Positions 16,555-33,169 of a DNA stretch of 33,169 nt are shown one piece after another. The stretch lies in the NCBI RefSeq assembly GCF_005144475.1, contig NZ_SWJZ01000104.1, positions 1 through 33,169 of the forward strand, given 5' to 3'. Position numbers and translations under genes: made by a program. This DNA comes from Rhodobacter capsulatus. GTDB taxonomy: Bacteria > Pseudomonadota > Alphaproteobacteria > Rhodobacterales > Rhodobacteraceae. The notes beneath the pieces were generated by a model. The model ran no database searches and was not told the origin of the DNA. It was given only the letters and a program-made list of their open reading frames with translations. Position 1 is the stretch's first letter. Each line of letters begins with the position of its first letter.

Positions 16555-16638
16555 GCGGGTGTGGCGGAATGGTAGACGCGACAGACTCAAACTCTGTTTC
16601 CGCAAGGAGTGTCGGTTCGAGTCCGACCACCCGCACCA
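16555..16638 (+). tRNA. tRNA-Leu (anticodon CAA)
   Basis: Acceptor stem GCGGGTG (16555-16561) pairs with CACCCGC (16628-16634), followed by discriminator A and an encoded CCA. The anticodon stem ACAGA/TCTGT encloses CTCAAAC, giving anticodon CAA, which reads UUG. A long variable arm (TTCCGCAAGGAGT region) is the class II form expected for tRNA-Leu, and GTTCGAGTCC supplies the T-loop. No integrase or duplicated 3' end is near it. Confidence 0.95.
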
Positions 16639-29003: not shown

Positions 29004-30875
29004 ATGCCCGAACCCGATCCCTATCGTCTTGCCCTCGTCGGCCCGCCGAACTGCGGCAAGACCTCGCTTTTCAATGCGTTGACCGGGGCCCGGCAAAAGG
29101 TCGGCAACTATGCCGGCGTCACCGTCGAGCGCAAGCTGGGCCTGTTCACCACCCCCGCGGCCAGGCGCATCGCGCTGATCGACCTGCCCGGCACGCACAG
29201 CCTGCGCGCGCGCTCGCCCGACGAGGCGGTGACGCGCGATGTCGTGCTGGGCCGTCATCCGGCCGAACCCGCGCCGCAACTGATGCTGGTCGTCGTCGAT
29301 GCCGTCGCTCCGCGCTCGGGGCTGCGGCTGGCGATGGAACTGGTCGCCACCGGCCTGCCGATGATCGTCGTTCTGAACATGATCGACATCGCCCGGCACC
29401 GGAAGATCGAGATCGACCGGGCCAGGCTGCAGGAAGAGCTGGGCGTGCCCGTCGTCACCTCGACCGCGGTGCGCAAGGGCGGGCTCGACGCGCTGTTGCG
29501 CACGCTTGACGAAACGCTGGCCGAGGGCGTGCCCGAGGCCGGGCCGAACCTCTGGGCGCCGCCCGACGCGGCCGATCTGCGCCTCAGCCACCGTGCCGCC
29601 GACCGGCTGATCACCCGCGCCGTGACGCAGCCGCCCGAGCATGACACGCTGACGCATCGCATCGACCGGCTGCTGCTGCATCCGGTCTTCGGGCTGATCT
29701 TCCTGCTCGGGCTTCTGTTCGTGATGTTTCAGGCGGTGTTCAGCGGCGCCGCGCCGGTGATGGATCTGATCGACGGCAGTTTCGCCGCGCTTTCGGATCT
29801 GATCCGCGCCCATGTCCCCGAGGGGCTGGTGCAAAGCTTCCTTGTCGATGCGGTGATCGGCGGCGTCGGCGGGGTGGTGATCTTCCTGCCGCAAATCGTA
29901 ATCCTGTTCCTGTTCATCCTGCTGCTGGAGGATCTGGGCTACATGGCGCGCGCGGCGTTTCTGATGGACCGGATCATGGGCGGGGCGGGGCTGCATGGCC
30001 GCGCCTTCATCCCGCTTCTGTCCTCCTTTGCCTGCGCCATTCCGGGCATCATGGCGACGCGGGTCATCGACAATCCGCGCGACCGGCTGACCACCATCCT
30101 TGTCGCGCCGCTGATGACCTGTTCGGCGCGGATCCCGGTCTATACGCTGATCGTCTCGGCCTTCATCCCGGCGCGCGCGATCCTGGGCATCTTCAGTCTG
30201 CAAGGGCTTGTGATGTTTGGACTTTACGGCGCGGGCATCGTTTCGGCCCTGGCCGTATCGGCGGTGAGCAAATTCCTGTTCGCGCGCGGCGAACCCTCGC
30301 CGCCCTTCATGCTCGATCTGCCCGATTACAAGATACCGCAGCCGCGCTCGGTGGGGATCGGGCTTTTCACCCGGGCCTCGGCCTTCCTCAAGCGCGCGGG
30401 CACGACGATCTTCACCATGACCGTGGTGATCTGGGTGCTTGCGACCTTCCCGCAGCCGCCCGAGGGGGCCACCGAACCGGCGATCCTTTACAGCTTCGCC
30501 GCCGGGATCGGGAAAATGCTGGAACCGATCCTGGCGCCGATCGGCTTCAACTGGCAGATGGCGGTGGCGATCGTCCCCGCCATGGCCGCGCGCGAGATCG
30601 CCGTGGCCGGGCTGGCCACCGTTTACGCGGTGTCGGACGGCGGCGGCGAGGCGGTTCTGGGCACGCTTCTGTCGGCGCAATGGAGCCTGGCGACGGCGCT
30701 GTCCTTCCTCGTGTGGTTCATCTTCGCGCCGCAATGCCTCTCGACGCTCGCGGTGATCAAGCGCGAGACCGGATCGGGCAAATGGATGTGGGTGACGGTG
30801 GGATACATGTTCGCGCTGGCCTGGGTCGCGTGTTTCCTGACCTATCATCTGGCGGTGGCTCTCGGCTGGGGCTGA
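29004..30875 (+). CDS. feoB: Ferrous iron transport protein B
   Basis: A 623-residue protein, shorter than the 773-residue E. coli form. The N-terminal GTPase has G1 GPPNCGKTS (13-21), switch I Thr40 in NYAGVTVERK, G3 DLPG (60-63) and G4 NMID (125-128). It is followed by the membrane domain with two gate motifs: IPLLSSFACAIPGIMATR and VAIVPAMAAREIAVAGLATVYAV, and LVWFIFAPQCLSTLAVIKRETGS. The family moves Fe2+ into the cytoplasm. Unusual: G1 has Pro instead of the common Asn/Ser at its second position. Cotranscribed with feoA. Confidence 0.95.
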   Translation: MPEPDPYRLALVGPPNCGKTSLFNALTGARQKVGNYAGVTVERKLGLFTTPAARRIALIDLPGTHSLRARSPDEAVTRDVVLGRHPAEPAPQLMLVVVDAVAPRSGLRLAMELVATGLPMIVVLNMIDIARHRKIEIDRARLQEELGVPVVTSTAVRKGGLDALLRTLDETLAEGVPEAGPNLWAPPDAADLRLSHRAADRLITRAVTQPPEHDTLTHRIDRLLLHPVFGLIFLLGLLFVMFQAVFSGAAPVMDLIDGSFAALSDLIRAHVPEGLVQSFLVDAVIGGVGGVVIFLPQIVILFLFILLLEDLGYMARAAFLMDRIMGGAGLHGRAFIPLLSSFACAIPGIMATRVIDNPRDRLTTILVAPLMTCSARIPVYTLIVSAFIPARAILGIFSLQGLVMFGLYGAGIVSALAVSAVSKFLFARGEPSPPFMLDLPDYKIPQPRSVGIGLFTRASAFLKRAGTTIFTMTVVIWVLATFPQPPEGATEPAILYSFAAGIGKMLEPILAPIGFNWQMAVAIVPAMAAREIAVAGLATVYAVSDGGGEAVLGTLLSAQWSLATALSFLVWFIFAPQCLSTLAVIKRETGSGKWMWVTVGYMFALAWVACFLTYHLAVALGWG

Positions 30876-30883
30876 GCCGGTTT

Positions 30884-31091
30884 CGGGCGGAGAAGGAAAG
30901 GCACCGCCTTTCCCCGCCCGGGTCGGCCGTGCGTTGGCAAGACCGCATCCCCAAGCACAGCAGAGGCCGGCGCCCGTCCTGGCGGGCGAGAAGCGCCCGC
31001 CATGGGCGGGGCGGGCGCTGGCCGAGGGCCTTCGGGCCCCCGGCGGTCATGGGGCATCTGTTTCGCATGGCCTCGGCGATGGCCGAGGCCA
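30884..31091 (+). repeat. Hairpin-rich two-copy element, copy A (candidate structured RNA)
   Basis: A chain of stems: CGGGCGG/CCGCCCG enclosing GGAAAGGC-ACC-GCCTTTCC; a conserved box GGCAAGACCGCATCCCCAAG; a long hairpin with loop AGAAG (30965-31023); GGGCC-TTCG-GGCCC; and CCTCGGC-GATG-GCCGAGG ending at 31089. It fills the space between feoB and allA. Copy B at 32973-33169, inverted, keeps the same order of stems with paired base changes. Confidence 0.8.
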
Positions 31092-31097
31092 AGACCT

Positions 31098-31583
31098 TTA
31101 GCCCTCGACCCGCAGCGGCACCGGCAGCGGATATTCCTCAAGATTCGCCCCCGGCCCGATCCGGTCCACCACCGCATAGCGCCCGGGCGCGCCGATCGGC
31201 GCCAGCACCCCGTGCCAGACATTGCGCAGGATGTTCACCCCCTGCCCCGGCGCCGTCAGAAACGCCCGGACCCGCACCGGCACGCCGCCCGCATCCTCGG
31301 CCACACAGACCAGAAACGGCACGCCATCGAGCGGCAAAAACGCCTGTGACCCCAGCGGATGACGCTCGACCAGATCGAGCACATAGGGCAAAGCCCGCGC
31401 CTGGGCCTCGAAGAGCGAAATCCCCGCCCGGCCTTCATCGTCAAACGAGAGCCGCGCCAGATCGTGATGGCGCCCGCAGAGCCCCGCGTTGATCAGCTTC
31501 GTCGGGGCCCCGAGCACGTCGATCAGATCGCCGAAGGGCCGAAAGGCCTCGGCCGTCAGGGGCTCTATCCGCAGCCGTTCCAT
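31098..31583 (-). CDS. allA: Ureidoglycolate lyase
   Basis: A 161-residue protein of AllA size. It begins MERLRIEPLTAEAFRPFGDLIDV, and has HPLGSQAFLPLDGVPFLVCVAEDAGG and GVNILRNVWHGVLAPIG, the conserved cupin-barrel segments of AllA that hold metal/substrate His residues. It cleaves ureidoglycolate to glyoxylate and urea in allantoin degradation. The ATG at 31583 follows GGAGGACGGG; a longer frame upstream has no good site. Divergent from puuD over 133 bases. Confidence 0.93.
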   Translation of the reverse strand: MERLRIEPLTAEAFRPFGDLIDVLGAPTKLINAGLCGRHHDLARLSFDDEGRAGISLFEAQARALPYVLDLVERHPLGSQAFLPLDGVPFLVCVAEDAGGVPVRVRAFLTAPGQGVNILRNVWHGVLAPIGAPGRYAVVDRIGPGANLEEYPLPVPLRVEG

Positions 31584-31716
31584 CCCGTCCTCCGCCGCCA
31601 TCCCCGCCCAAGAAAGGCGCAAAATCGGGCAAGTGCAAGGGGGCGACGCCGCCCCGTCGCTTTTGCGCTGGAGGCCGCGTCCCCGCCCCGCTAGCCTGAG
31701 CCCAAAGGAGACGCGC
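31584..31716. promoter_or_regulatory. Divergent allA-puuD intergenic region
   Basis: 133 bp separating the two start codons, so promoters for both genes must lie here. No convincing -35/-10 pair was recognised. The puuD ribosome site is AAAGGAG (31705-31711). Confidence 0.5.
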
Positions 31717-32955
31717 ATGGATGCTGCACTGATCTGGGACTGGGCCACTTTTGCGATGCGCTGGCTGCATGTCGTGACCGCGATCGCCTGGATCGGCTCG
31801 TCCTTTTACTTCATCGTGCTCGATCTGGGGCTGCGATCCGCGCCCGATCTGCCCAAGGGCGCGGCGGGCGAGGAATGGCAGGTGCATGGCGGCGGTTTCT
31901 ATCACATCCGCAAATATCTGGTCGCGCCGGAGCGCATGCCGGAGCATCTGACCTGGTTCAAATGGGAAAGCTACGCGACCTGGCTGTCGGGTGCGGCGAT
32001 GCTCATCCTGGTCTATTGGCACCGGGCGGATCTGTTCCTGATCGACCCGGCCAAGGTCGCCTGGGCGCCCTGGCAGGGCATGGCGATTTCGGCGGCCTCG
32101 CTCACCCTGGGCTGGCTGATCTATGATGCCGCCTGCAAATCGCCCCTGGGCAATTATCCGGCGGCCTTCATGGCGCTGCTGCTCGTGGCGCTGACCGCGA
32201 TGGCCTGGGGCTACGGGCAGATCTTCACCGACCGCGCGGCCTTCCTGCATCTGGGCGCCTATACTGCCACGATCATGACGGCGAATGTGTTCCTGATCAT
32301 CATTCCGAACCAGAAGATCGTGGTGGCCGATCTGCGCGCGGGCCGGGCGCCCGATCCGAAATACGGCAAGATCGCCAAGCTGCGCTCGATGCACAACAAC
32401 TACCTGACGCTGCCGGTGGTGTTCTTCATGCTGTCGAACCACGCGCCCCTGGCCTTTGCGACGACCTGGGCCTGGGTCATCGCGGCGCTGGTCTTCCTGA
32501 TGGGGGTGACGATCCGGCACTGGTTCAACAGCCGCCATGCCCGCAAGCCCGCGCCATACTGGACGATCCCGGCGACTTTGCTGCTCTTTGGCCTTTGCGT
32601 CTGGCTCTCGATGCAGGGCACGCGCGAGGCGCCGGAGGAAGAGGCGGCACTTTCGGGCACCGCTTTGCAATTTGCGCAGGCCCCGGGATTTGACGAGGTC
32701 GCAAGCCTTGTCACCGCCAATTGCGCGATGTGCCACACCCGCGAGCCCGCCTATGAGGGGATCGGGGCGGCACCGAAGGGGCTGCTCCTCGACACGCCCG
32801 AGGCCGTCGCGCGGGCGGCCGAACCGGTCTTCATCTTTGCCGGGCTGACGGCGGCGATGCCGCCCGGGGCGGCGAATTTCATGACGCCCGAGGACCGCGC
32901 GGCGATCCGCGCCTGGTATCGTGCCGGGGCAGAAGCAGAGCTTGCGCAGAACTGA
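31717..32955 (+). CDS. puuD: Membrane urate oxidase PuuD with cytochrome c domain
   Basis: A 412-residue protein. The N-terminal ~300 residues form a membrane domain with about eight hydrophobic segments (WLHVVTAIAWIGSSFYFIVLDLGLR at 16-40, then WLSGAAMLILVYW, and others) of the urate oxidase N-terminal type. The C-terminus is a cytochrome c domain with CAMCH at 336-340 and a likely Met ligand in TAAMPP (~381). The enzyme oxidises urate with electrons going to a respiratory chain rather than making peroxide, as known for this family. ATG 31717 follows AAAGGAG. Confidence 0.93.
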   Translation: MDAALIWDWATFAMRWLHVVTAIAWIGSSFYFIVLDLGLRSAPDLPKGAAGEEWQVHGGGFYHIRKYLVAPERMPEHLTWFKWESYATWLSGAAMLILVYWHRADLFLIDPAKVAWAPWQGMAISAASLTLGWLIYDAACKSPLGNYPAAFMALLLVALTAMAWGYGQIFTDRAAFLHLGAYTATIMTANVFLIIIPNQKIVVADLRAGRAPDPKYGKIAKLRSMHNNYLTLPVVFFMLSNHAPLAFATTWAWVIAALVFLMGVTIRHWFNSRHARKPAPYWTIPATLLLFGLCVWLSMQGTREAPEEEAALSGTALQFAQAPGFDEVASLVTANCAMCHTREPAYEGIGAAPKGLLLDTPEAVARAAEPVFIFAGLTAAMPPGAANFMTPEDRAAIRAWYRAGAEAELAQN

Positions 32956-32972
32956 CGGGGTGTCGGGCGGGC

Positions 32973-33169
32973 TTCCCTGACCGAGGCCATCGCCTCGGTC
33001 ACGCGGACCATGTCCCCTTGTCCGGCCGCGGCCCAAAGGCCGCCGGCCAGCGCCTGCCCCGGCGGGCGCTTCTCGCCCGCCGGGGCAGGCGCTGGCCTTT
33101 GGTGTGCTTGGGGAAGCGGTCTTGGCATCCCCGTGGCTCTGTCGGGCGGGCAAAGGCGGAGCCTTTGCC
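32973..33169 (-). repeat. Hairpin-rich two-copy element, copy B (inverted, cut by the window end)
   Basis: Reading from the right edge on the minus strand: GGCAAAGGC-TCC-GCCTTTGCC, box GCCAAGACCGCTTCCCCAAG, a perfect 24-bp hairpin with 5-base loop (33045-33097), GCGGCC-TTTG-GGCCGC, and GACCGAGG-CGATG-GCCTCGGTC ending near 32979. It is downstream of puuD and inverted relative to copy A. Its 5' outer stem partner would lie beyond 33169. Confidence 0.8.

What the first reader, a model, noticed from the sequence alone, without database searches (positions are those of the whole stretch)
30884..33169. Two inverted copies of a ~200-bp multi-hairpin element flank allA-puuD and show paired stem changes
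Copies A (30884-31091, plus) and B (33169-32973, minus) share order and spacing of at least five stems. Several stems differ between copies in a compensatory way: GGAAAGGC/GCCTTTCC versus GGCAAAGGC/GCCTTTGCC; GGGCC/GGCCC versus GCGGCC/GGCCGC; CCTCGGC/GCCGAGG versus GACCGAGG/GCCTCGGTC. A near-identical unpaired box (24 bases, two differences) sits between them. Copy A has a C(UUCG)G tetraloop on the plus strand, suggesting the RNA polarity. Base-pair conservation with sequence change points to selection on RNA (or hairpin DNA) structure. I do not recognise the family.
Basis: partly seen in the sequence, partly recalled or inferred. Interest (0 to 1): 0.75.

Follow-up and report, generated by a model that had tools for sequence, protein, structure and literature searches.

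The report
Hairpin repeats filling gene-end sockets
The two hairpin-rich stretches belong to a family of roughly 41-50 copies per genome that sit against the ends of genes and keep their folded shape while their letters change; in related strains the places stay the same, but the copy found at a place is often a different one facing the other way.

Summary
Each copy is ~213 bp with hairpins P1, P3, P4 and P5. Stem changes are compensatory: 123 double-changed cells in 60 copies versus 40 in shuffles and at most 15 when slid; the four top-ranked column pairs under a tree-aware null are stem pairs. No Rfam match, Y1 transposase, correlated reverse transcriptase, target duplication or U-tract. The full element or its P3 core occurs in Rhodobacteraceae.

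Copies abut stop codons (within 25 bp in 137 of 145) and mostly fill the gap between convergent genes (102 convergent, 43 codirectional, 2 divergent). Four related genomes share 44 of 54 sites, yet of 160 orthologous site pairs 80 are same-orientation and 80 inverted; inverted residents are only paralogue-like. Sites persist while residents are swapped.

Best reading: a non-autonomous mobile repeat, selected for structure, that occupies terminator positions and probably forms 3' ends for both genes; how residents are replaced is unknown.

The parts
30882..31094 (+). Element copy A, complete, between feoB (stop at 30875) and the convergent allA (stop at 31098)
   Evidence: R1 match 216.8 bits, model 1-213; gene ends from the ORF list and the gene finder
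30884..30920 (+). P1 of copy A: outer CGGGCGG/CCGCCCG stem, 4-nt bulge, inner GGAAAGGC/GCCTTTCC stem
   Evidence: Alignment A1 columns 3-41; column pair 19-29 is GC 45, CG 9, AU 5 of 60; first-ranked covarying pair
30938..30961 (+). Conserved, mostly unpaired 24-base box of copy A
   Evidence: Sequence and alignment
30965..31023 (+). P3 of copy A, long two-part hairpin; inner hairpin GGCGGGCG-AGAAG-CGCCCGCC at 30981-31001
   Evidence: Alignment and pair counts; the inner hairpin as an exact pattern hits at least 112 stretches in genome contigs
31024..31041 (+). P4 of copy A, can extend into the base of P3 (alternative pairing)
   Evidence: Pairs 167-177 and 168-176 with both sides changed in 10 and 9 of 60; columns 98/160/184 read CGC in 44 and GCG in 7 of 60
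31068..31091 (+). P5 of copy A, terminal hairpin; perfect here, but with a two-base mismatch in 40 of 60 copies
   Evidence: Pair counts
32975..33169 (-). Element copy B, 5' end cut by the contig end, behind the stop of puuD (32955)
   Evidence: R1 match 159.5 bits, model 13-213, cut off at 5'
33149..33169 (-). Inner P1 hairpin of copy B (GGCAAAGGC/GCCTTTGCC)
   Evidence: Sequence, fold
33046..33097 (-). P3 of copy B, without the 3-base bulge arm seen in A
   Evidence: Sequence and fold, alignment
32978..33001 (-). P5 of copy B, perfect but different from P5 of A (GACCGAGGC/GCCTCGGTC)
   Evidence: Sequence and alignment

Best explanation
A family of non-autonomous, dispersed, multi-hairpin DNA elements (~213 bp; 41, 43 and 50 strong copies in three genomes) of Rhodobacteraceae. 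Shown here: copies sit directly behind stop codons, chiefly as the whole spacer between two convergent genes; base pairing is under selection across the family and in copies inherited in place; sites are empty in congeners; between related strains the sites are kept while the resident is exchanged for another copy, more often in the opposite orientation. Inferred: the element is an orientation-indifferent 3'-end module, whose hairpins end or protect the mRNAs of both neighbours so that a separate terminator becomes dispensable; and it spreads as mobile DNA that lands beside or over existing copies. Direct doubles would persist as arrays or recombine into chimeras; inverted doubles would be large unstable palindromes that lose one member, which would give an inverted replacement. 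The enzyme is unknown.
For: Copy number and spread. Covariation and constraint in place. Stop codon within 25 bp in 137 of 145; 102 convergent, 43 codirectional, 2 divergent (102:2 p = 5e-28). At the L193 site G010 has the element where G000, G012 and G009 have a terminator-like hairpin with A- and T-rich flanks between the same convergent genes. Empty sites at the window's own locus in G005, G002, G017 and at the L217 locus in G000 and six congeners. 44 of 54 sites shared, 80 same and 80 inverted of 160 pairs, 0 of 80 inverted at identity >= 0.87. Unrelated residents: 71 inverted, 24 same-way of 145 pairs. Chimeric same-way pairs. 28 of 28 neighbouring copies in other species are direct.
Against: No U-tract, so it is not a canonical intrinsic terminator, and no expression data were at hand: termination is inferred. 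Of 127 single changes in paired positions of in-place pairs only 29 leave a standard pair in both copies, so structure is not strictly kept in every copy. No double occupancy in the four genomes' lists and no remnant of a second copy in 75 spacers of 30 bp or more, although the model predicts transient doubles. No candidate enzyme: Y1 transposase in 0 of 15 genomes, reverse transcriptase absent from two copy-rich genomes. The flip bias is not significant in one of the three main genome pairs (12 to 6, p = 0.24).
Confidence: 0.5

Rival explanations
1. Purely selfish REP- or MITE-like repeat. It collects behind stop codons only because insertions elsewhere are harmful; pairing is kept because the hairpins are the substrate for mobility, not because of a host role.
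For: Dispersed, absent from most congeners by DNA search (13 of 41 genomes match, four of them with many copies), empty sites, arrays.
Against: Paired columns are constrained in copies inherited in place (3.0% vs 12.1%); the sites are kept in relatives at 89-95% flank identity; at one site the element stands in place of a terminator-like hairpin.
Confidence: 0.25
2. Independent insertions: each strain was colonised separately at the same preferred gene ends, so shared sites carry unrelated copies in random orientation.
For: Inverted residents are at paralogue level (0.774 vs 0.752-0.761).
Against: It predicts equal numbers of unrelated same-way and inverted residents, but 24 vs 71 were found, 2 vs 17 for G000-G012. 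44 of 54 sites are shared, and the empty sites read look unremarkable.
Confidence: 0.12
3. In-place inversion by a site-specific recombinase, with gene conversion between copies scrambling the sequence afterwards.
For: 80:80 orientation at shared sites; chimeric same-way pairs.
Against: The same copy flipped was not seen: 0 of 80 inverted pairs reach 0.87, while 42 of 80 same-way pairs do; the variable stretch is related in 2 of 73 inverted pairs, no more than the 5.9% of random pairs.
Confidence: 0.08
4. A family of structured RNA genes or of 3'-UTR-derived small RNAs acting in trans (near the reader's view).
For: Strong, covarying RNA-like fold.
Against: Orientation is not kept at sites, wobble polarity differs between stems, the UUCG loop is in 1 of 60.
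Confidence: 0.05

Closest known systems
Br-REP1 / Br-REP2 of Bradyrhizobium (PMC5082802, passages read)
   Same: Alphaproteobacterial dispersed palindromic repeats in 3'-UTRs; Br-REP1 was found with two flanking palindromes in the overlapping 3'-UTRs of a convergent gene pair.
   Different: Other sequence as printed in the passages, named repeat unit of ~20-40 nt, other families of bacteria; the passages I saw report no exchange or inversion of residents at conserved sites. No direct comparison of sequences was run.
REP/BIME elements with RAYT (Y1) transposases (recalled)
   Same: Many extragenic hairpin copies, often behind stop codons; direct arrays.
   Different: ~213 bp with several hairpins; no Y1 transposase domain in 15 Rhodobacter genomes.
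MITEs (recalled)
   Same: Short, dispersed, non-coding, mobile by the evidence of empty sites.
   Different: No target-duplication signal and, by eye, no terminal inverted repeats.
Bidirectional intrinsic terminators (recalled)
   Same: Same position, between convergent stop codons; one terminator-like hairpin replaced by the element in G010.
   Different: No U-tract, several hairpins, member of a dispersed family.

Membership tests
REP/RAYT system | Y1 (TnpA-REP) transposase in the genome | tested here: not met
   PF01797 in 0 of 15 genomes, among them the four copy-rich ones; control genomes ring in 5 of 14
REP/RAYT system | Short single palindrome of ~20-40 nt (recalled definition) | tested here: not met
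   Unit of ~213 bp with P1, P3, P4, P5
MITE | Target-site duplication | tested here: not met
   Longest shared word of the two flanks 4.43 bp vs 4.41 shuffled
MITE | Terminal inverted repeats | tested here: not met
   By eye only: 5' end TTCGGGCGGA and 3' end GGYCARR are not inverted repeats
Intrinsic terminator | GC-rich hairpin followed by a U-tract | tested here: not met
   Hairpins present, no U-tract behind P4 or P5 in the consensus and end profiles
Intrinsic terminator | Position directly behind a stop codon | tested here: met
   Within 25 bp in 137 of 145 copies
Intrinsic terminator | Ends transcription | not testable with these tools
   No expression data
Structured RNA family | Covariation supporting a conserved fold | tested here: met
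Structured RNA family | Discrete transcript of fixed polarity | tested here: inconclusive
   Transcript not testable; polarity not indicated by wobbles or orientation
Any Rfam 15 family | Match at the gathering score | tested here: not met
   Only a tRNA in the window; permissive scan of copy A gave 7 matches, all far below their gathering scores
Retron or group II intron derivative | Reverse transcriptase present in copy-rich genomes | tested here: not met
   PF00078 absent from G009 (19 copies listed) and G059 (14 matches), present in 7 of 12 with no link to copy number
Dispersed extragenic palindromic repeat (broad class) | Many intergenic copies with palindromic structure | tested here: met

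The most novel reading that the evidence does not exclude
These genomes hold about 50 fixed 'sockets' at gene ends whose resident element is repeatedly replaced by an unrelated family member, preferentially in the opposite orientation, by a homing or exchange process that involves neither a Y1 transposase nor a reverse transcriptase and leaves no target duplication: a new mode of repeat turnover, with the element acting as an orientation-indifferent 3'-end module.
Probability: 0.4. Interest if true: 0.9.

Novelty: new variant of a known kind. Interest (0 to 1): 0.7.

Why it matters
As I recall the field, relatives usually share an intergenic repeat in one orientation by descent, or lack it. 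Here the place is inherited and the occupant is not. That makes two questions testable in Rhodobacter capsulatus, a laboratory species: how such repeats move, and whether they have become host parts for making mRNA 3' ends. The family also supplies over 200 related sequences (228 model matches) for structure work, and it warns against reading covariation in intergenic repeats as proof of an RNA gene.

Tried and rejected
Rfam, strict on the whole window and permissive on copy A: nothing. Link to RAYT: rejected. Link to reverse transcriptase: rejected. Carriage on plasmids or phages: no blastn match at E <= 1e-5 in 72,556 plasmid and 50,697 phage records (records near the window's own genome may be left out). 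Composite transposon made of A and B: rejected, since the two sites flip independently in relatives. Orientation by replication direction: looked at the strand list of G010 by eye, no pattern seen, not tested. Remnants of a second copy in spacers: none in 75. An ad hoc terminator finder (positive in 7 of 147) was not validated, and as I read its criteria it would miss the hairpin at the L193 site, so it is not used. My local background of convergent pairs (11 of 247) is biased downward because loci are centred on convergent pairs; I use convergent against divergent instead. One weak model match in G009 about 1 kb from the allA end (L409, 20.4 bits) was not followed. Literature: eight searches showed no paper on this repeat; four of them returned no listing or a single paper, and the library holds open-licence PMC papers only.

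Rows dropped: of 67 located copies 60 went into A1; left out were two partial views at locus ends, L021, L031 (97% like A), L034, L061 (damaged) and L065 (275 nt). Searches used 190 distinct sequences of 200-225 nt out of 228 matches. One search used 38 of 41 strong copies of G000 (left out: B, L061, and one never fetched), 50 of 53 matches of G010 (three weakest left out), 43 of 43 of G012, and the 19 of G009 listed, a capped list. The fingerprint test used 145 of 160 pairs (elements of 195-225 nt). Searches searched chosen loci, not every locus held.

Full report
Check of the observation. Copies A (30882-31094, +) and B (32975-33169, -) are real and fold far better than shuffles. B is cut by the end of the contig. 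A DNA search with A gives 41 rows in the window's own genome. A covariance model R1 built from 60 copies gives 45 rows there, 41 with E < 1e-20; 53 in G010, 50 of them with E < 1e-28 and every listed row on contig C1; and 43 in G012.

Anatomy. The consensus has P1 (outer CGGGCGG stem, 4-nt bulge, inner GGAAAGGC-type stem), a variable stretch, a conserved box, the long P3 with the inner hairpin GGCGGGCG-AGAAG-CGCCCGCC, then P4 and the terminal P5. In 40 of 60 copies P5 has a two-base TC/TC mismatch; the others have matched but differing stems. Columns 98, 160 and 184 read CGC in 44 and GCG in 7 of 60 copies (CAC 4, GCC 3, two singles), so P4 may extend into the base of P3: possibly two alternative folds.

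Covariation. On the 60 copies 93.4% of cells pair against 89.5% in shuffles; 123 cells are changed on both sides against 39.8 (0 of 500 shuffles), and at most 15 when partners are slid. On 190 sequences from several genera the four best column pairs under a tree-based null are stem pairs of P1, P5 and P4. Within the Rhodobacter set (87) 11 column pairs have an expected number of false positives below 1, of which I count 7 as stem pairs (P1, P3, P4, P5; one of them, 193-206, is mostly the P5 mismatch); in the other set (103) 6, of which 4 are stem pairs. The remainder are neighbours or linked haplotypes. In 42 same-orientation pairs inherited in place, paired columns differ at 3.0% and unpaired at 12.1%; of 6 double changes 5 keep the pair, but of 127 single changes only 29 do. 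So pairing is constrained in residents, not strictly. Which molecule folds is open: G.U wobbles favour the plus strand in P3 and the other strand in P4 and P5.

Distribution. Most of the 80 listed rows are Rhodobacteraceae (Rhodobacter, Frigidibacter, Pseudorhodobacter, Tabrizicola, MAGs); two are a planctomycete and a polyangiacean. Many are full-length elements whose P1 and P5 changed in a pairing-preserving way. In 149 genomes of the family 50 match R1 at E <= 0.001; most of the listed rows from genomes other than G000, G045 and G059 are weak, many covering the P3 core only. Cores with P4 stand alone as short elements in several genera. In 190 genomes across the class two match at E <= 1e-5, the own genome and one of the same family. 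No match on plasmids or phages.

Place in the genome. Of 147 copies with both neighbours called, 102 lie between convergent genes, 43 between codirectional and 2 between divergent genes. Convergent and divergent pairs are equally many in a circular chromosome, so 102:2 is far from chance (p = 5e-28). A stop codon lies within 25 bp in 137 of 145 copies; in 80 of 102 convergent cases both gaps are 25 bp or less. Genes were called with my own codon-usage script, which recovered feoB, allA and puuD. At the site of L193 three relatives (G000, G012, G009) carry a terminator-like hairpin with A- and T-rich flanks between the same two genes, and so does G005 by eye, where G010 has the element. At the window's own A site G005, G002 and G017 have the two genes end to end within a few to several tens of bp and no element; G009 has another gene there. 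At the L217 site G000 and six congeners match continuously, that is, are empty. So the element can be gained or lost at gene ends and can stand in for a terminator. It has no U-tract; termination is inferred.

Sites stay, residents change. For 150 copies in four genomes, matching both 1-kb flanks (mean identity 89.7-94.5% by genome pair) gives 54 sites, 44 shared by two or more genomes, and 160 orthologous pairs: 80 with the element in the same orientation, 80 inverted (sample alignments). Same-way residents are often the same copy (42 of 80 at 0.87 or more); inverted residents never reach that (0 of 80), and in an earlier subset averaged 0.774 against 0.752-0.761 for paralogues. With the variable stretch as fingerprint, 145 pairs split into 48 same-way related, 24 same-way unrelated, 71 inverted unrelated and 2 inverted related; 5.9% of random pairs look related. 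Unrelated residents are inverted against same-way 17 to 2 for G000-G012 (p = 0.0007), 20 to 5 for G010-G012 (p = 0.004) and 12 to 6 for G000-G010 (p = 0.24); the three comparisons share genomes, and pooled pairs are not independent. Several same-way pairs below 0.87 are chimeras. The window's own sites show it: A is inverted in G010 and same in G012, B is same in G010 and inverted in G012. Mis-assembly is unlikely as the sole cause, because G010 is held in two contigs and copies differ by about 24%.

Mechanism. In loci of other species neighbouring copies form arrays; 28 of 28 neighbours within 300 bp are direct, 20 of the 28 spacers are 23-27 bp. I propose that new copies land beside residents; direct doubles persist or recombine to chimeras, inverted doubles are unstable palindromes that lose one member, leaving an inverted replacement. 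This is inference: no remnant of a second copy was found in 75 spacers, and no enzyme: Y1 transposase in 0 of 15 genomes, reverse transcriptase missing from two copy-rich genomes, no target duplication.

Comparison. In kind it is a dispersed extragenic palindromic repeat. The nearest description found is Br-REP1 of Bradyrhizobium, seen with flanking palindromes in the overlapping 3'-UTRs of convergent genes (PMC5082802, passages). It fails the tests for RAYT-linked REPs, MITEs and canonical intrinsic terminators. Eight literature searches showed no description of this family. PMC8632094, on structured RNAs including Rhodobacterales motifs, was seen in 12 passages; those do not describe it, and the rest was not read.

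Verdict. The fold is under selection, a sense-strand RNA gene is not indicated, and the most surprising fact is that the sites are inherited while the orientation and identity of the resident are not.

Noticed in passing
L036, L046, L052, L380-L385 (G020); L387-L389 (G078); L390 (G172): In other genera the P3 hairpin carries roughly 60-80 nt of extra sequence in its apical part, different from copy to copy in G020 and alike in G078: a hairpin with a variable cargo.
   Followed up: partly
L091, L155, L184 (Frigidibacter and a related locus); similar in other orientation in L162, L167: A second hairpin-rich insert, with a text like GGTGATGAGCGA...GAAACCTTCC...GGAAGGTTTCC...GAACGCCCGGCC, stands inside P3, perhaps another repeat family nested in this one.
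   Followed up: no
L178, L092, L090, L140, L170 and others: Direct arrays of two to four elements at a period of about 240 bp, with spacers that resemble each other in some MAGs.
   Followed up: partly
L206 (G010) against L266 (G012): The resident is 99% identical while its flanks are 91-92% identical, which suggests recent exchange between strains; the end of the right-hand gene differs at the junction.
   Followed up: no
L419 1682-2887 (-) (G009): Between feoB and allA, where the window has copy A, G009 has a ~1.2-kb reading frame that by eye looks like an RTX-type calcium-binding repeat protein; no family search was run.
   Followed up: no
L228, L231, L233 (three genera): The P3-P4 core sits at what reads by eye as the same cysS-cimA junction in three genera, which hints at one long-kept site.
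   Followed up: no
window 16555-16635 (+): A tRNA gene, the one Rfam match of the window at gathering score.
   Followed up: no
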